This document shows positions 48,293 through 54,834 of a stretch of DNA of 64,000 bases, in pieces. Numbering within the stretch: the first letter of the stretch is position 1; each line of letters begins with the position of its first letter. This stretch comes from Cryobacterium flavum (GTDB taxonomy: Bacteria; Actinomycetota; Actinomycetes; Actinomycetales; Microbacteriaceae), in assembly GCF_900103805.1 (NCBI RefSeq), contig NZ_FNIB01000006.1, positions 124,001 through 188,000 of the forward strand, given 5' to 3'. The translations under genes and the position numbers were made by a program. The notes below the pieces were generated by a model. The model was not told the DNA's origin and made no database searches. It was given only the letters and a program-made list of their open reading frames with translations.

Positions 48293-48369
48293 GCCCCCAT
48301 AGCCCAATTGGCAGAGGCAGACGACTTAAAATCGTCACAGTCTGGGTTCAAGTCCCAGTGGGGGCACCA
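48293..48369 (+). tRNA. tRNA-Leu (anticodon TAA), short variable loop
   Basis: Acceptor GCCCCCA/TGGGGGC, discriminator A and an encoded CCA. Anticodon stem GACGA/TCGTC holds loop CTTAAAA (anticodon TAA). T arm CTGGG-TTCAAGT-CCCAG. The variable region is only five bases (ACAGT), unlike the long arm expected for tRNA-Leu. The 3' half is duplicated in degenerate form at 61512-61535, and a tyrosine integrase remnant follows immediately, so this is the probable island attachment site. Confidence 0.9.
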
Positions 48370-48404
48370 CGAGAATTTCTACTCTGATCTAGGATTTAAC
48401 TTGG

Positions 48405-49049
48405 TCACCGGGGCCTCAGTACCCTGATTGCCCACATTCCGCCCACACTTAAAATCATTCGGGCCTGATCGAGGGCCACTGCGACGCTGTTCAGGTCGTC
48501 GTCGAAGAGCTCCGCGTACACGTCGAGGGTCATCGCGGCCGAGGCGTGGCCGAGCATCCGCTGCAGCGCTTTGACGTTCGCGCCGGCGGACACAGCCAAG
48601 CTCGCGGCGGTGTGCCGTAGATCGTGCGGCGTGACGCGCGGGAAAGTCGGATCGACCTCCCGGGCGCGTTTGAGGGCGTAGACCAGCCAGCCGTCCCGAG
48701 CTGACGGGGTGCGCTGGTGCGACAGCCCGTTGCCAAACAGGATCTGGTCAGGTGTCTTGTCGGCGCAAAGCAGTGCCAGGCGGTCCGCCAGGAACGGCGG
48801 GAACGGAACCGTGCGTGCCTCGTGCGACTTGGGCGTGCCGAGGAGAATCTTGCCGCCGACCCGCACGGCGTTCTCCCGTACCGCCAGACGCCTGCGGGTG
48901 AGGTCCACGTCTCGCACCCGTAATCCAGTCACCTCACCCCAGCGCAGGCCGGTGTAGGCGAGGGTCAGTATGACTGTTCCGTGCGTCGTCGCCGAGGTTG
49001 CGAGCAGGTCGACCTGTTCGTGTGAGAGATACGTGTGCGGTTTCTTCAA
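48405..49049 (-). pseudogene. Truncated tyrosine recombinase (phage-type integrase)
   Basis: 214 residues covering only the catalytic domain. Arg of TGLRWGE, HDLRHTAA (HxxR), LGHAS (His) and the nucleophile Tyr in TLDVYAELF are all present. The N-terminal arm- and core-binding domains (about 170 residues) are missing, and the open frame begins at a TTG codon, LKKPHTYLSHEQVDLL, that corresponds to mid-protein of intact homologues. It ends 36 bp from the tRNA-Leu, the usual place for a tRNA-integrating island. It is probably a non-functional remnant. Confidence 0.85.
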
Positions 49050-49259: not shown

Positions 49260-50099
49260 TCAGGGGTTGCAGTAGTCGCACCAGGTGGGGTCGGCGCGAG
49301 TGTTGTCGCGTGAGACTCTGCTCCGGTGGTCGCATTTGCCGCAGGCGTGGATGTCGGCGGCGATGACGCGGGTCGGGGAACCGCATTGGGAGCAGGGGAG
49401 GCCGTGTTCGACGTCGACTTGCCCGAACCCGGGGGTCTGACAGGTGGGGCATTCGGTGGCGAGACGTTGGGCCATTTGGGCGCAGAGGGTTCGGATGGTA
49501 TCTGCGCGGGAGGGTGCGTGGTGCGCCCGGTAGTCGGGTAGAACGATCACGGTGGACCCATTCTTGAGCATTGCCTGAACGGTCTGCTCAAGCTGGTCAA
49601 GGTCCGTGATGTTTTTGTGGGCGGTGGTTAGGGCAGCTTTCGTGCTTTGCACGATCACTCCTTGGGCGGGGAAGCCTAGCGCTTCACCGTAACGTCGGGC
49701 TTGGGGTGCCGCGGTGATGGTGTGGCCTCCGGGGATGGGGGAGGTGGTGCGGGTGCCTTCAATGAGTTCCAGTCCGAGGTCGTCGTCGATGAACAGCAGA
49801 ATCTCCATGTGCTCGACCGGCCCGAAGGTTGCGCTGAAGCTTCCCTCGGAGGCAAGACCGAGGGTGCTGCTGGCCATTTGCATGCCGAGGCGAGCTTTTA
49901 CGCGGGCGGCAGCTCTGGGGGTGAGGATGCGGGGGATATCGCCGGCGAAGGTTCCGAACTGGTCGGTGTCCAGTCCTTCGGGGGCGGTGACTGTCGCACC
50001 GAGAACGTCACGGAATGCGTCGCGTGCGAGGTGTTCTTTGCCGTGCATGGTTGCGAAGGTGATGTGGCGGTCTTTATAGTGCGTGGGGCGGAGAGTCAT
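49260..50099 (-). CDS. DUF6671 zinc-ribbon protein in dab operon
   Basis: 279 residues. The N-terminal part (MHGKEHLARDAFRDVLG; LDTDQFGTFAGDIPR; TLGLASEGSFSATFGPVEHMEILLFIDDDLGLE) matches DUF6671. The C-terminal 64 residues hold four CxxC pairs (CPTC, CSQC, CGKC, CDYC, ending CNP), suggesting two zinc sites. It is cytosolic, with no signal or membrane segment. Its ATG overlaps the stop of the PII-like gene, so it is the last member of the inorganic-carbon uptake operon. Function unknown; a zinc-delivery, nucleotide-sensing or enzymatic role are all possible. Confidence 0.85.
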   Translation of the reverse strand: MTLRPTHYKDRHITFATMHGKEHLARDAFRDVLGATVTAPEGLDTDQFGTFAGDIPRILTPRAAARVKARLGMQMASSTLGLASEGSFSATFGPVEHMEILLFIDDDLGLELIEGTRTTSPIPGGHTITAAPQARRYGEALGFPAQGVIVQSTKAALTTAHKNITDLDQLEQTVQAMLKNGSTVIVLPDYRAHHAPSRADTIRTLCAQMAQRLATECPTCQTPGFGQVDVEHGLPCSQCGSPTRVIAADIHACGKCDHRSRVSRDNTRADPTWCDYCNP

Positions 50100-50413
50100 T
50101 GGAAGTACTCGGGGCGGGAGACGTAGGTGTCGGCCACGAACATGACTCCGCTGGAGGTGCTGAGCAGCTCGCGGATGGCGTCGATGAGCTCGCCGGATTT
50201 GCCCGGGGGAAGGACGGTGATGAGCATGGTGAGGGTGTCGTATTCGTTGAACAGCAGGGCACCAGAGTGTTGGCCATGGTGGCCGATGCCAGACACCCCG
50301 GATACCGAGGTGTAGCCGGTGGCGCCGGCGGTGGTGATCAATTCGCGGATGGCGGAAGCGTCACGGGCGGGCACGATCACCTCCAATCGAGTCATCTGAG
50401 TCAGGTTGTTCAC
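50096..50413 (-). CDS. PII-like signalling protein of the dab operon
   Basis: 105 residues from the GTG at 50413, which overlaps the dabA stop (GTGA). The beta-alpha-beta ferredoxin-like pattern RLEVIVPARDASAIRELITTAGATGYTSV, a T-loop-like GVSGIGHHGQHSG and a second half TLTMLITVLPPGKSGELIDAIRELL are characteristic of PII/SbtB-type proteins. The canonical uridylylation Tyr of GlnB is not evident. PII-like proteins next to bicarbonate transporters gate uptake in response to adenine nucleotides; this role is inferred here from context. Confidence 0.82.
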   Translation of the reverse strand: MNNLTQMTRLEVIVPARDASAIRELITTAGATGYTSVSGVSGIGHHGQHSGALLFNEYDTLTMLITVLPPGKSGELIDAIRELLSTSSGVMFVADTYVSRPEYFQ

Positions 50414-52848
50414 AGTGAGGTCCCTTCCGTGGTCGAGTTTGTCGGTTTCCACCCGTAGGCGCCGTACTGGTGCCAGGGTTCGTGGGCGGTGCTGCGGGCG
50501 GTGAGGGTGATCCAGTCGTTGTCGAACAGGTTCCTCAGCACCTGGTTGCGGGAGATGATGACACCGATCCGCTCCAGGGGTGCCTCGATGATGACGGCCA
50601 ACCGCATCGGCTCATGGAAGAGTGTTGTGCCGACCCCGACCGATTGCCAGGGCAGCCCGCGCCGGAGGTCCCCGGCCTGACCGGCGATCACTCCGATGGT
50701 GCCGATGGCGTTGTGAATGGTTTTCGTGCCCGCACCCAAGGTGTCGGGGTTGAGCGCGGAGAAGTAGTACTGGTGGTTGATCCACTGCGCGACCACAAGG
50801 GGGGCAGTCATGATTGTCTCCAGCGCGGTCCCGTCCGGGTCGAGGGAGGTGTCGTAGGAGTGCAGGAACACGCGCCGGCCGAGGTCGATCCCGCGGGTCA
50901 GGGTGCGGGAGCCGATGACCATAGCGGCGTTGCCGGCGAGCCCGAGCTCGGGGTACACCTCCGCCCAGTCATACGCCCGCGCCCGCACCCGTGCTGGGGA
51001 CTGCCTCCTCGTCGCTCCCGGAAGATCTGCCGCGCGCTCGTTCAGGAGCGCTAGTCCAGCGTCGTAGTGCAGCTGATCAAACTGGCTAGTCAGGCCGCGG
51101 TGGGTGTCGGGGATGAGGTGATGGTCGAGCAGGGTGATGGTGTCGCGGGTGGTGTTGTGGTCGGCTGCGACGAAAACCGTGTCTTCCGGGATGTCGATTC
51201 CTCGCAGCATCAGCAGCGCCCGGACGGCCGGGTCGTTGAAGATTGTTGCGGCGGCGCGAGCGTTGGCAGCGCCAGGGTTTCCGCCACACGCGCCGCAGTC
51301 CAGGGCGGACTGGTAGAGGTTGTTGGCCGACTCGGAGGAATGTCCGGCCAACACCACCAGTGGTGCGAAATCGGTCATTCCCATCATCCTTACGGCGGTT
51401 TCGGCGATGCCGGCGCGTTCCTCGAGCGTGAAAGCGTCCGCGATCGTCACAGCACTATGCAGCGGAACTGAATGCCAGCGGTTCAGTCGTCGATGCAGGC
51501 TGGGTGCAAAGGTGCGTAGCATGCTGGTTGGACCGTAGAGCCAGCCGGCCGTTTCCGCGAACGCGAACGGGGTTGCGGTGCTGGAGTCAGCGTTGTGCAC
51601 GGCCCGACGAAGCGCGTCCCGGGCACGACCGCGCGCCACATACTTCTCAGCGTGAACGGTGTCGGTCGGGTCCTCAGTGAGAGTGTGACGTGGCGTGAGC
51701 AGAGCGGGCAGCGAGTTGATGCTCCCGCGGGCGCTGTATCGGGCGAACCGGACGGGTACCCCGAAGAACCCGGCGAACCCGAACGTCTCCACCTCGTCCG
51801 TGATTTCTAGGTGACGTCGCATGCCTTCCGATCTGGGGTCGATGCACATCACCACCTGAAATGTGGGCCGCACTCCACGAGTCGAAGTCGCCGGGCTCAG
51901 GGACCGGATCAGGGTGGTGCGGTAGTGCAGTTCGTAGGCTTTCTGCCAGGTGAACGGGTGCTCAGTGATCGGGTGGTGGGCCAGCACGCGGGCAATGGCC
52001 GCCACGGCTTCACGCGTGGGTCGTTCACTGAGGCGCGCGGTGAGCTGTTCAGCCCGCTGCCAGAGCCCCGCCCGCTCATCGGCTACGCCAGCGGGCGACG
52101 GCAATGCTGCCACTGGGAGGGTGAGCACTGCTCGTAGGACGAACCGGCTGGCGAGGTAGGAGGTCAGGTCAATATCGCCGTGCTTCTCTGCCCGCCACTT
52201 GATGTAACCGACCCATCCTGGCTGGTGCTCCAGTTCTTGGGCGAGGGTACCCCGGATCAGTTCTGGGGCGATGGCGAGCCGGGCCAGCGCCCAGTCGAGG
52301 GCCGCGTCCGCCTGCACTGGTGCTTCCCGCAGGGTCCGTCGTGCGGCCCGAGGCAGACAGGGGTCCCGGAGGGCCAGGCGGCGCCAAGCCCCAAAGAACC
52401 CGTCTCCGATGTGAGGCATTGGCCACAGCGGATCCGGGGTCAGGCCCGCGGGCAACCATGCAGCCAGATACTCATCAAGCCACCGCGTCGAGCGCGAAGG
52501 TGCGGACGGTGTCGGGATCGGAGCCCACGAGGCGGTGGTCATGTCGAGGACGGCGACTCGAACGGCGGGGACCGTCTGCCCGTCCACGCTGAACGTGGCG
52601 GAGGAAAGTTCCGGGATTCGTTCGCTGATTGCTTGGGCAAGGTCGGCATCGGTAATGCGGCCCTTCCTCAGATCCTCCAAATAGTCGTGCTGATCGCGGG
52701 TCAGCGCAACCCCAGCCGCGGTGACAGTGTGGAAAGGGTTGGCCTCGTGGCCGGCCAAGGGGTTCACGGCGATGAACGACTCCACCGGCCACCCGGACAC
52801 GATGTTCCGGGCGGCAGACGCGATCTGCGCGCGAAGAATCAAACTCAT
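50410..52848 (-). CDS. dabA: Inorganic carbon transporter subunit DabA (DUF2309)
   Basis: 812 residues from the ATG at 52848 (overlapping the dabB stop); an upstream in-frame extension is not homologous. DabA is a beta-carbonic-anhydrase-like subunit that, with DabB, hydrates CO2 vectorially using an ion gradient. Zinc ligands are visible: Cys335 and Asp337 in VVMCIDPRSE, His503 in VVLAGHSSESANN and Cys518 in ALDCGACGGNPG. The His-Cys spacing (15) equals that of the characterised Halothiobacillus protein, where these residues bind zinc. VNPLAGHE near the N-terminus is also conserved. No carboxysome or RuBisCO gene is in the window. Confidence 0.94.
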   Translation of the reverse strand: MSLILRAQIASAARNIVSGWPVESFIAVNPLAGHEANPFHTVTAAGVALTRDQHDYLEDLRKGRITDADLAQAISERIPELSSATFSVDGQTVPAVRVAVLDMTTASWAPIPTPSAPSRSTRWLDEYLAAWLPAGLTPDPLWPMPHIGDGFFGAWRRLALRDPCLPRAARRTLREAPVQADAALDWALARLAIAPELIRGTLAQELEHQPGWVGYIKWRAEKHGDIDLTSYLASRFVLRAVLTLPVAALPSPAGVADERAGLWQRAEQLTARLSERPTREAVAAIARVLAHHPITEHPFTWQKAYELHYRTTLIRSLSPATSTRGVRPTFQVVMCIDPRSEGMRRHLEITDEVETFGFAGFFGVPVRFARYSARGSINSLPALLTPRHTLTEDPTDTVHAEKYVARGRARDALRRAVHNADSSTATPFAFAETAGWLYGPTSMLRTFAPSLHRRLNRWHSVPLHSAVTIADAFTLEERAGIAETAVRMMGMTDFAPLVVLAGHSSESANNLYQSALDCGACGGNPGAANARAAATIFNDPAVRALLMLRGIDIPEDTVFVAADHNTTRDTITLLDHHLIPDTHRGLTSQFDQLHYDAGLALLNERAADLPGATRRQSPARVRARAYDWAEVYPELGLAGNAAMVIGSRTLTRGIDLGRRVFLHSYDTSLDPDGTALETIMTAPLVVAQWINHQYYFSALNPDTLGAGTKTIHNAIGTIGVIAGQAGDLRRGLPWQSVGVGTTLFHEPMRLAVIIEAPLERIGVIISRNQVLRNLFDNDWITLTARSTAHEPWHQYGAYGWKPTNSTTEGTSL

Positions 52849-54299
52849 GACACAACTCTCTGAACACTCGGCGGGCGGGATACGGTCGTCGTCACAGCGC
52901 GGGCATAGACGAGATTGCGGAAACCGGTGAGGCACTGGGTGCTGGCAAGCAGTTGCACGCCCAGCAGACTGAGCCCCGGAAGTAGCAGCAGCCATGCGGG
53001 GGCAGCAGTGATGGAGAAGACCGGCTGTAAGGCAGCGGTGAAAGTGTGGAGGAACGCGACGTAGCCGACCAGGAGGAGCACTGTCGCGCCGACACCGGAC
53101 ACGAAGGTGCGGAGCGTGAAGTGAGTGATCAGGGCGGAAGCCAGGGCGACGGAGGCGGTCAGGGAGACGAAGCCGAGCAAGCCGATCGTTGCCGCTGAGG
53201 CTGTGGGCGCCAGGACCAGTTTTGCGGCCAGCAGCGTGCCGCCGGGCACGAGGACACCCACCGCTACCGCGATGCCGTAACTGACACGGGTGCGAGGTTT
53301 CGGGTCAGGTAGGTCGCGGCTGACGGTGTGTTGGGTGATGCCCGCGCCGGCTCCCAAGAACAGTGCGGACTTGAAGAGGGAGTGAGCGATCAGGTGGAAG
53401 ATCGCGGCGGCGAACAGCCCGAGGCCGCAGGCCATGATCATGAATCCCATCTGCCCCATCGTCGAAAACACCAACCGACCCTTCACGTCCGCACGCACCA
53501 ACCGCACCGCAGCAGCGTAGGTGAGTGTTGTCGCTCCCACCAGAAAAACGATCGTCATGACCGAGGCGTGCAGAGCAATGGCGGGAGCGAACCGGAACAA
53601 CAGGATCGCGCCTGCGTTGACGACACCGGCGTGCATCAGGGCGGACACAGGAGTGGGTGCCGCCAAAGTGAACGGCAACCAGCCGTGAAAAGGGATCTGG
53701 CTGGAGCGTGCGAACGCACCTGTCGCCAGCAGCCCGGCCACGATCACCTGCACCGGCACCGGCAGGCCCGTGACCACAGCACCCAGCCGGGCCCAGGACA
53801 GGTCCCCGCCACCCGCCACCAGCAGCACCACCACCGCGGACACGAACGCGGCATCGGCGAGGATGAACCTCACCGCGGTGGCCCGCTTCCCGCGCCGAGC
53901 CTGAGCTAGCGGAAAATACGTTCCCAGCAGCAGTACCAACGCCGCTCCCGCGCCGATCCACCCGACTGCAAATACCGCGACGGAGCCTGCACACACCATC
54001 AGAACGGTGAACCCTGTCAACAAGGCGGAGGCGGCCACAAACCAGAGCTGGCGTGAGTCGCCTCGAAGGTAGCGGATCGCGAAGCTCTGGATCAGGGCGC
54101 TGAGGCCTAGCACCAACGCCGATAACACCACCGCCAGGCCATCCACCTGCAGCGTCGACCGCTGGATCCCCACGCGCAGAGAGCCCGAGGAGAAGATGAC
54201 CGGAATGGCAACGACCGTGACCAAAAATCCGACCCCCATGACCACCGCTACGAGACGTGCGACCACCTCCGCCGGCTGGTTCAGTTGGTTGCCGTTCAT
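52845..54299 (-). CDS. dabB: Inorganic carbon transporter subunit DabB (NuoL/Mrp-like membrane protein)
   Basis: 484 residues with about 13 hydrophobic helices, of the proton-antiporter family (NADH dehydrogenase subunit 5-like). RSSQIPFHGWLPFTLAAPTPVSALMHAG (199-225) is the family signature, and HLIAHSLFKSALFLGAGAGI another. In known DAB systems this subunit carries the cation flux that drives DabA. It is the first gene of the operon, with a 4-bp overlap into dabA. It is shorter than NuoL (about 600), as expected for DabB. Confidence 0.93.
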   Translation of the reverse strand: MNGNQLNQPAEVVARLVAVVMGVGFLVTVVAIPVIFSSGSLRVGIQRSTLQVDGLAVVLSALVLGLSALIQSFAIRYLRGDSRQLWFVAASALLTGFTVLMVCAGSVAVFAVGWIGAGAALVLLLGTYFPLAQARRGKRATAVRFILADAAFVSAVVVLLVAGGGDLSWARLGAVVTGLPVPVQVIVAGLLATGAFARSSQIPFHGWLPFTLAAPTPVSALMHAGVVNAGAILLFRFAPAIALHASVMTIVFLVGATTLTYAAAVRLVRADVKGRLVFSTMGQMGFMIMACGLGLFAAAIFHLIAHSLFKSALFLGAGAGITQHTVSRDLPDPKPRTRVSYGIAVAVGVLVPGGTLLAAKLVLAPTASAATIGLLGFVSLTASVALASALITHFTLRTFVSGVGATVLLLVGYVAFLHTFTAALQPVFSITAAPAWLLLLPGLSLLGVQLLASTQCLTGFRNLVYARAVTTTVSRPPSVQRVVS

Positions 54300-54300
54300 A

Positions 54301-54405
54301 CCCGCCCTTCATAACACGTAACATAAAACACGATAAATATAACACGTGTTGTGGATCGGAAATCAGCAATGGGGAAAAGCGGGTCCCGTGGGGGACAATG
54401 ATTTG
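54301..54405. promoter_or_regulatory. Divergent dab/regulator promoter with three phased AACACG repeats
   Basis: A strikingly AT-rich patch in high-GC surroundings. AACACG occurs at 54313, 54327 and 54341, an exact 14-bp period; the last copy is part of the palindrome AACACGTGTT (54341-54350). TATAAC- and TAAATAT-like hexamers overlap the repeats and could serve as -10 boxes. Probable operator of the divergently encoded winged-helix protein at 54406. Confidence 0.6.
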
Positions 54406-54834
54406 ATGACGCACTGGACGTTTCTGACCAATCACGCGCACGTGCTGCTGTGTGTGGCCGATAACCCGAACGTTCGGCTGCGGGACGTGGCAGTGCAGGT
54501 CGGCATCACCGAGCGGGCAGCGCAACGCATTGTCACCGAGTTGGAAGAGGCCGGCTACCTGGAGCGGGAGCGAGACGGGCGGCGCAACCTCTACCGCCTG
54601 AACACGGCGATGCCGCTACGGCACCCGCTGGACCGCGACCACCGCATCGGGGAACTGCTTGCTTTTCAAGCTCTACGGCCCGCCGGCACGACCGGGCTGC
54701 CTCAGGACTCCAAGGCCCAGGCCGAGCAGGTCCGCTCGATCGCCGTCGATCGACTGGGCGCGATCCTCTGGCACGCCCCTGCAGAGGTCATGGCGCGCCT
54801 TGACGACGCATTGCGTCTTCACTTGCAGCTATAG
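54406..54834 (+). CDS. Winged-helix transcriptional regulator divergent from the dab operon
   Basis: 142 residues from the ATG at 54406 (ORF continues upstream but the MTHWTFLTNHAHVLLCVADNP start is family-like). Helix-turn-helix: VRLRDVAVQVGITERAAQRIVTELEEAGYLERERDGRRNLYRLN (about 25-68), a MarR/ArsR-type fold with wing. The C-terminal 70 residues have no recognised ligand domain. Divergent placement with phased repeats between the genes points to control of dabB-dabA-PII-DUF6671. Confidence 0.82.
   Translation: MTHWTFLTNHAHVLLCVADNPNVRLRDVAVQVGITERAAQRIVTELEEAGYLERERDGRRNLYRLNTAMPLRHPLDRDHRIGELLAFQALRPAGTTGLPQDSKAQAEQVRSIAVDRLGAILWHAPAEVMARLDDALRLHLQL

What the first reader, a model, noticed from the sequence alone, without database searches (positions are those of the whole stretch)
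49260..54299. Four-gene DAB inorganic-carbon operon with PII-like and DUF6671 partners
dabB, dabA, a PII-like gene and a DUF6671 gene all overlap by 3-4 bp, so they are certainly one translational unit. DabA retains the zinc ligands of active enzymes. A PII-like protein suggests nucleotide/bicarbonate-responsive gating, and DUF6671, with four CxxC pairs, is an unexplained component. This regulated DAB variant in a heterotroph could feed bicarbonate to anaplerotic enzymes.
Basis: partly seen in the sequence, partly recalled or inferred. Interest (0 to 1): 0.8.

Follow-up and report, generated by a model that had tools for sequence, protein, structure and literature searches.

The report
Regulated DAB bicarbonate pump gene cassette
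A bacterium without the usual CO2-fixing enzyme carries a bicarbonate-accumulating pump together with a sensor-like protein, an unstudied protein that resembles nucleotide enzymes, and a gene switch whose sister copy sits beside a second bicarbonate transporter, which suggests a dedicated control system for inorganic carbon.

Summary
dabB, dabA, a PII-like gene and a DUF6671 gene overlap by 4 bp at each junction; DabA keeps the zinc ligands and DabB the proton-path residues of the solved DAB2 complex. DabAB with PII was already in print; the paper library holds nothing on DUF6671. Of 31 DUF6671 loci, 18 hold DabA in the flank, 8 isocitrate dehydrogenase, 1 SbtA, 6 none of these.

(2) The divergent MarR-like regulator has relatives beside dabB (10 of 26) or near sbtA (12 of 26), and a 26-bp inverted repeat learned from other genomes' dab promoters also marks this genome's dab and sbtA promoters, though 8 of 12 sbtA-linked upstreams lack it. 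This is a regulated variant of a known pump; the role of DUF6671 is unknown but testable.

The parts
52845..54299 (-). dabB, 484 aa, NuoL/Mrp-like membrane subunit
   Evidence: PF00361 E 1.4e-31; 9rd0 DabB2 E 5e-44, the proton-path Ser, His, Lys, Ser, His, His, Lys aligned to identical residues
50410..52848 (-). dabA, 812 aa, zinc CO2-hydrating subunit; Cys335, Asp337, Arg339, Glu432, His503, Cys518 counted from ATG 52848
   Evidence: PF10070 E 6.5e-214; 9rd0 DabA2 E 3.9e-108; residues in 44 DabA sequences; start and overlap
50096..50413 (-). PII-like protein (CPII type), 105 aa from GTG
   Evidence: PF00543 E 6.9e-19; 5d4l E 3.7e-17
49260..50099 (-). DUF6671 protein, 279 aa: N-terminal part with ITPase-like predicted fold, C-terminal part with four CxxC pairs
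   Evidence: PF20376 E 7.4e-41; AlphaFold2 pLDDT 87.2, and 93.2 for a relative; Foldseek
54325..54350 (.). 26-bp inverted repeat in the dabB-regulator gap, putative operator
   Evidence: matrix from 7 sites of 6 other genomes scores it 33.8 bits; maximum 14.0 in 1,919,250 base-shuffled positions; a pattern written after seeing it matches exactly in 2 places of the genome
54346..54834 (+). divergent MarR-like winged-helix regulator (likely start ATG 54406) with a MazF/PemK-like C-terminal tail
   Evidence: MarR_2 E 7.7e-8, above cut-off; PemK_toxin residues 110-159 E 2.5e-5; no PemK match in the 4 relatives scanned

Best explanation
This is a DAB inorganic-carbon cassette with its own control layer. 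DabA and DabB form a membrane-potential-driven, one-way carbonic anhydrase that turns CO2 into cytoplasmic bicarbonate. The PII-like protein, probably made from the same transcript, gates the pump by reading adenylates and/or bicarbonate. A MarR-like regulator transcribed the other way binds a 26-bp inverted repeat between itself and dabB; its paralogue, with the same kind of site, stands before sbtA in the same genome, so the cell has a small inorganic-carbon regulon covering two transporters. DUF6671 is most likely a nucleotide-handling protein (ITPase/YjjX/Ham1-like predicted fold with a zinc-ribbon-like tail) that sets or reads a nucleotide signal of this control layer. Shown: gene content, overlaps, conserved residues, recurrent neighbourhoods, shared promoter repeat, resemblance of predicted folds. 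Inferred: pumping, gating, DNA binding, and everything about what DUF6671 does.
For: DabA and DabB residues. PII-like protein closest to CPII-type entries. DUF6671 and DabA: 7 and 20 of 296 genomes, both in 5 (Fisher p 1.6e-5); 9 and 9 of 150, both in 7 (p 4.3e-9), uncorrected for kinship; all 7 with regulator, dabB, dabA, PII and DUF6671 in this order. Of 31 DUF6671 loci, 18 hold DabA, 8 isocitrate dehydrogenase, 1 SbtA, 25 any of these, 19 the regulator. Regulator relatives: 26 matches in 150 genomes after setting aside 3 tail-only matches; 10 beside dabB, 12 with sbtA within 1.5 kb, 1 beside isocitrate dehydrogenase, 3 none. Repeat matrix. No RuBisCO match. Best Foldseek hits of both models are ITPase, YjjX and Ham1 types.
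Against: No expression, binding or uptake data. TM-scores to ITPase-type structures are 0.36 to 0.47 on the target length, only 3 and 1 hits reach E 0.001, PelC chains are mixed in from rank 10 of the first search, and sequence comparison sees no link. The repeat with 3 or fewer mismatches is missing from 2 of 10 dab-linked, 8 of 12 sbtA-linked and 16 of 17 upstreams of the named loci. At 2 or fewer mismatches the genome count (14) is near its control (10), and at 3 or fewer the window holds 2 against 3.9 expected, so a wider regulon is not supported. 6 of 31 DUF6671 loci hold none of DabA, isocitrate dehydrogenase or SbtA, 3 of them cut short on one side; a PII-like gene is seen in only 6 of 31. 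DUF6671 and DabA are far apart in G080. Many of the 31 loci are metagenome bins and some are near-copies.
Confidence: 0.55

Rival explanations
1. Plain DAB: only dabAB matter; the PII-like and DUF6671 genes are loosely associated passengers of a cassette that spreads as a block.
For: A tRNA-Leu and an integrase-like ORF adjoin the cassette and both sampled same-genus genomes lack DabA and DUF6671, so block transfer is plausible. 15 of the 20 DabA genomes of the phylum sample lack DUF6671.
Against: DUF6671 recurs with DabA in different gene orders (4 of 18 DabA-bearing loci in the same direction, 14 divergent) and, without DabA, beside isocitrate dehydrogenase or SbtA, which simple hitch-hiking does not explain.
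Confidence: 0.2
2. MpsAB-like sodium/bicarbonate symport: the pair imports bicarbonate with sodium instead of hydrating CO2.
For: The homologous MpsAB complex of a heterotroph has been argued to use sodium (stated in PMC13144422).
Against: Zinc ligands, Asp-Arg dyad, finger Glu and proton-path residues of DAB2 are retained; this does not by itself exclude sodium use.
Confidence: 0.15
3. DUF6671 is a housekeeping cleaner of damaged nucleotides, or a zinc-ribbon protein that binds nucleic acid, unrelated in function to carbon uptake.
For: ITPase-type proteins are known (recalled) mainly as nucleotide cleaners; chance-level matches of the CxxC part are to zinc ribbons; PF01931, the YjjX family, is in 0 of 296 genomes of the phylum, leaving room for a substitute.
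Against: A general cleaner would not be expected to be so patchy (7 of 296) and so often beside dab or isocitrate dehydrogenase genes.
Confidence: 0.25

Closest known systems
DAB2 of Halothiobacillus neapolitanus (DabA2/DabB2, 9rd0)
   Same: Both subunits, zinc ligands, Asp-Arg dyad, finger Glu, proton-path residues
   Different: Here with a PII-like gene, DUF6671 and a divergent MarR-like regulator; tunnel residues Arg653 and Trp656 are Tyr and Leu
nuoL-ybcC operons with a 3' PII gene (PMC5700660, passages) and nuoL-DUF2309-PII genes of alpha-carboxysome loci (PMC4633670, passages)
   Same: dabB-dabA with a PII-like gene at the 3' end
   Different: No RuBisCO match here; DUF6671 and a MarR-like regulator are not named in the passages seen, which name LysR for another clade
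CPII, carboxysome-associated PII-like protein (5d4l, 5d4n; the name is recalled, the paper's title was seen)
   Same: Closest PDB sequences to the PII-like protein
   Different: Encoded in a DAB operon of a genome without a RuBisCO match; ligands untested
ITPase/YjjX/Ham1/Maf nucleotide pyrophosphatases
   Same: Best Foldseek hits of two DUF6671 models
   Different: TM-scores near 0.4, no sequence-level match, added CxxC tail
Ham1 of Prochlorococcus and marine Synechococcus alpha-carboxysome loci (PMC4207490, passage)
   [quoted passage not shown] a possible parallel
   Different: PMC12918739 (passage) describes Ham1 as having a putative histone acetyltransferase domain; homology to DUF6671 was not tested
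MpsAB of Staphylococcus aureus
   Same: Homologous pair in a heterotroph (PMC13144422; PMC6689103 seen in listings only)
   Different: Ion used here unknown

Membership tests
DAB inorganic-carbon complex | Adjacent PF10070 and PF00361 genes | tested here: met
DAB inorganic-carbon complex | Cys2His zinc ligands and Asp-Arg dyad | tested here: met
DAB inorganic-carbon complex | Finger Glu of DabA and proton-path residues of DabB | tested here: met
DAB inorganic-carbon complex | Rescue of carbonic-anhydrase-deficient E. coli | not testable with these tools
   needs an experiment
PII-like, CPII type | P-II family membership and closest solved kin CPII | tested here: met
   (5d4l 3.7e-17)
PII-like, CPII type | Adenylate and bicarbonate binding | not testable with these tools
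   ligands of CPII recalled; paper not held
ITPase/YjjX/Ham1 superfamily (for DUF6671) | Fold | tested here: inconclusive
   best hits, but TM-scores near 0.4
ITPase/YjjX/Ham1 superfamily (for DUF6671) | Sequence-profile similarity | tested here: not met
   profile against one YjjX sequence; profile against PDB, no ITPase hit; no such Pfam match
ITPase/YjjX/Ham1 superfamily (for DUF6671) | NTP pyrophosphatase activity | not testable with these tools
   needs an assay
MarR-type regulator | MarR_2 domain above the Pfam cut-off | tested here: met
   (32.8 bits, cut-off 27)
MarR-type regulator | Binds an inverted repeat in its own promoter | tested here: inconclusive
   repeat present and shared with sbtA; binding not tested

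The most novel reading that the evidence does not exclude
DUF6671 is a previously unrecognised ITPase-type nucleotide protein dedicated to inorganic-carbon uptake: it makes or removes the nucleotide that the PII-like protein reads, and together with a MarR-like regulator and its 26-bp operator it forms an actinobacterial carbon-sensing regulon covering DAB, SbtA and, in some lineages, isocitrate dehydrogenase. The unexplained Ham1 gene of cyanobacterial alpha-carboxysome loci would be a parallel case.
Probability: 0.3. Interest if true: 0.82.

Novelty: new variant of a known kind. Interest (0 to 1): 0.62.

Why it matters
How DAB pumps are switched on and gated is open, above all in organisms that do not live on CO2. 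This cassette offers a small testable set: a pump, a PII-like sensor, an unstudied partner with a predicted nucleotide-enzyme-like fold, and a regulator with a predicted 26-bp site that also stands before sbtA. If right, it gives an outline of an inorganic-carbon regulon in Actinomycetota and a function to look for in DUF6671 and perhaps in the carboxysome-linked Ham1.

Tried and rejected
Rejected: dabA starting at 52995 (151-bp overlap with dabB; ATG 52848 gives a 4-bp overlap as at the other junctions). Not supported: the cassette as a compositional island; G+C of its genes is 0.62-0.66 against 0.646 for the window. A direct repeat of the tRNA-Leu end was looked for in the window and not found, so insertion at that tRNA stays open. 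DUF6671 against the PDB by sequence: nothing as a single protein, only chance-level matches, mostly to zinc-binding proteins, with a 32-sequence profile. A profile of YjjX-type NTPases from the same phylum could not be built: PF01931 is in 0 of 296 genomes. A wider regulon by whole-genome pattern search is not supported (14 matches at 2 or fewer mismatches, control 10). A second palindrome (TTCACGAA or TTCGTGAA), picked by eye, was counted in the 31 DUF6671 loci: 24 found, 5.0 expected from base composition; 10 of the 24, in 8 loci, lie within about 120 bp upstream of a regulator start when compared. Paper searches for a regulator beside sbtA or for dab regulation listed nothing relevant by title; the word DUF6671 gave 0 papers. 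The library lacks most subscription papers; Desmarais 2019 and Wheatley 2016 are not held.

Full report
OBSERVATION. The four genes exist as described, on the minus strand: dabB 52845-54299, dabA 50410-52848, PII-like 50096-50413, DUF6671 49260-50099. With these starts, which are my choice among the possible ones, all three junctions are 4-bp stop-start overlaps.

PUMP. DabA matches PF10070 at 6.5e-214 and the solved DabA2 chain 9rd0_A at 3.9e-108. Counted from ATG 52848, Cys335, Asp337, Arg339, His503 and Cys518 align with Cys351, Asp353, Arg355, His524 and Cys539, and Glu432 with the finger Glu444; PMC13144422 (abstract, Introduction and Results read) reports that mutating these impairs or abolishes activity. 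Zinc ligands and Asp-Arg dyad are identical in 44 of 44 DabA sequences from ORFs over 1500 bases (some contigs are in twice under two handles). DabB aligns with DabB2 (5e-44) with Ser256, His260, Lys310, Ser316, His339, His343 and Lys347 identical; by my reading of that alignment Lys235 is Arg and Arg182 is Ile. Two residues of the second tunnel, Arg653 and Trp656, are Tyr and Leu here; Tyr is seen in 10 of 44 and Leu in 7 of 44.

PII-LIKE PROTEIN. P-II family; nearest PDB sequences 5d4l and 5d4n, which I recall to be CPII of Thiomonas. [quoted passage not shown] the paper is not held. For a precedent of gating, PMC8438413 (passages) reports that the PII-like SbtB abolished SbtA uptake when both were expressed in E. 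coli. A PII gene at the 3' end of nuoL-ybcC operons is described in PMC5700660 (passages) and DUF2309 with nuoL and PII in alpha-carboxysome loci in PMC4633670 (passages). This part is therefore known.

DUF6671. No paper of the library holds the word. In 296 genomes of the phylum it is in 7 and DabA in 20, both in 5; in 4 of these 5 the two lie within about 4 kb, in G080 they are far apart. In 150 genomes of the family each is in 9, both in 7, and all 7 show dabB-dabA-PII-DUF6671 with the divergent regulator; G361 holds a second copy of each on other short contigs. DabA without DUF6671 is in G369 and G378, DUF6671 without DabA in G354 and G389. Fisher p is 1.6e-5 and 4.3e-9, or 1.7e-4 and 5.6e-8 without the window's own genome, uncorrected for kinship. 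A scan of genome contigs gave 31 loci, three of them on contigs of the same length as contigs of the phylum sample (L054, L075, L084). Within the DNA held, DabA is in 18, isocitrate dehydrogenase in 8, SbtA in 1, any of the three in 25, the regulator in 19 and a PII-like gene in 6 of 31. Of the 6 loci with none of the three, L063, L065 and L079 are cut off within 1 kb on one side. Of the 18 with DabA, 4 have DUF6671 in the same direction and 14 divergent: L070 has the order found here, L076 (Actinotalea lenta) a fused DabB-DabA, and Jiangella muralis and Microlunatus parietis show dabB-dabA-isocitrate dehydrogenase-ilvD-DUF6671. Two of the dehydrogenases were named by NCBIfam, both as NADP isocitrate dehydrogenase. 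Many loci are metagenome bins and some are near-copies, so the counts are not independent events.

FOLD OF DUF6671. Two AlphaFold2 models, one of the window protein (pLDDT 87.2, 7 sequences) and one of the Jiangella relative (pLDDT 93.2, 28 sequences), were compared with the PDB. Best hits are YjjX (1.4e-4), a Ham1 homologue and VC0702 at ranks 1-9, with PelC chains from rank 10 on; and human ITPase (2.7e-4), YjjX, archaeal NTPases, a mycobacterial dITP/XTP pyrophosphatase and KomBC at ranks 1-10 (that the KomBC chain is Ham1-like is recalled). TM-scores on the target length are 0.36 to 0.47 for these, and sequence profiles do not see the link. I therefore call this a probable, not a proven, membership. 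[quoted passage not shown] PMC12918739 (passage) ascribes a putative histone acetyltransferase domain to Ham1. Whether this is a true parallel is open.

REGULATOR AND REPEAT. The divergent gene is MarR-like. Its C-terminal part resembles MazF/PemK toxins; no PemK match was found in the 4 relatives scanned, and 3 of the 29 family matches at E 1e-12 hit only this tail (L143 is a PemK toxin). The other 26 matches fall in 23 of 150 genomes: 10 are beside dabB, 12 have sbtA within the 1.5-kb flank, 1 is beside isocitrate dehydrogenase, 3 have none of these (only two of the sbtA genes were confirmed with Pfam). In this genome the second copy stands before an Sbt_1 gene. A symmetrised 26-bp matrix was built from 7 dab-linked sites of 6 other genomes, chosen by eye out of 9 such upstreams. 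It scores the window's dab promoter 33.8 bits, this genome's sbtA promoter 29.3, the sbtA promoter of a same-genus genome 25.3, and L130, L136 and L127 20.3, 18.7 and 18.2, against a maximum of 14.0 in 1,919,250 positions of base-shuffled window. A pattern written after seeing both own sites matches exactly at these two promoters only. Against: 3 or fewer mismatches are reached in 8 of 10 dab-linked, 4 of 12 sbtA-linked, 1 of 4 other family upstreams and 1 of 17 upstreams of the named loci (L076 could not be scored), and looser matches in the genome and the window are at chance level.

SETTING. No RuBisCO large-subunit match; one beta-carbonic anhydrase outside the window. A tRNA-Leu (48293-48369) and an integrase-like ORF of 214 aa (48405-49049) adjoin the cassette. 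The two sampled same-genus genomes have neither DabA nor DUF6671. This suggests horizontal gain, but no att repeat was found and G+C does not differ.

VERDICT. A regulated variant of the known DAB pump. The pump and the PII link are known kinds; DUF6671 with its ITPase-like predicted fold, and a regulator with a repeat shared by dab and sbtA promoters, are the new, testable parts.

Noticed in passing
window 54346-54834: The regulator ORF ends in a MazF/PemK-like tail not found in the 4 relatives scanned; it looks like a fusion to a remnant of a toxin-antitoxin gene.
   Followed up: partly
window 48293-49049: tRNA-Leu next to a 214-aa tyrosine-integrase-like ORF.
   Followed up: partly
L041-L045, L050-L053: In 9 of 44 DabA sequences the residue equal to Leu658 is His, Ser356 is Glu and Glu444 is Gln, His or Asp; 7 of these 9 loci hold several NuoL-like genes. 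PMC13144422 states Leu658 to be strictly conserved among its 150 homologues.
   Followed up: no
L133, L135, L136, L138, L139, L140, L071, L081: TerC-like membrane protein genes recur between or beside the regulator and sbtA, and beside DUF6671 in two loci (L138 confirmed).
   Followed up: no
L064:6669-7892, L106:9714-10652: Two DUF6671 loci without DabA carry purK or a threonylcarbamoyl-AMP synthase gene nearby, enzymes that I recall to use bicarbonate; chance not excluded.
   Followed up: no
31 DUF6671 loci, L054-L084: Other recurrent neighbours: a FabI-like reductase in 8, ilvD in 5 and a CysD-like gene in 3 of 31; unexplained.
   Followed up: no
L054, L057, L059, L060, L061, L073, L074, L083: TTCACGAA-type palindromes lie just upstream of the regulator in these 8 loci, in L059 between isocitrate dehydrogenase and regulator.
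   Followed up: partly
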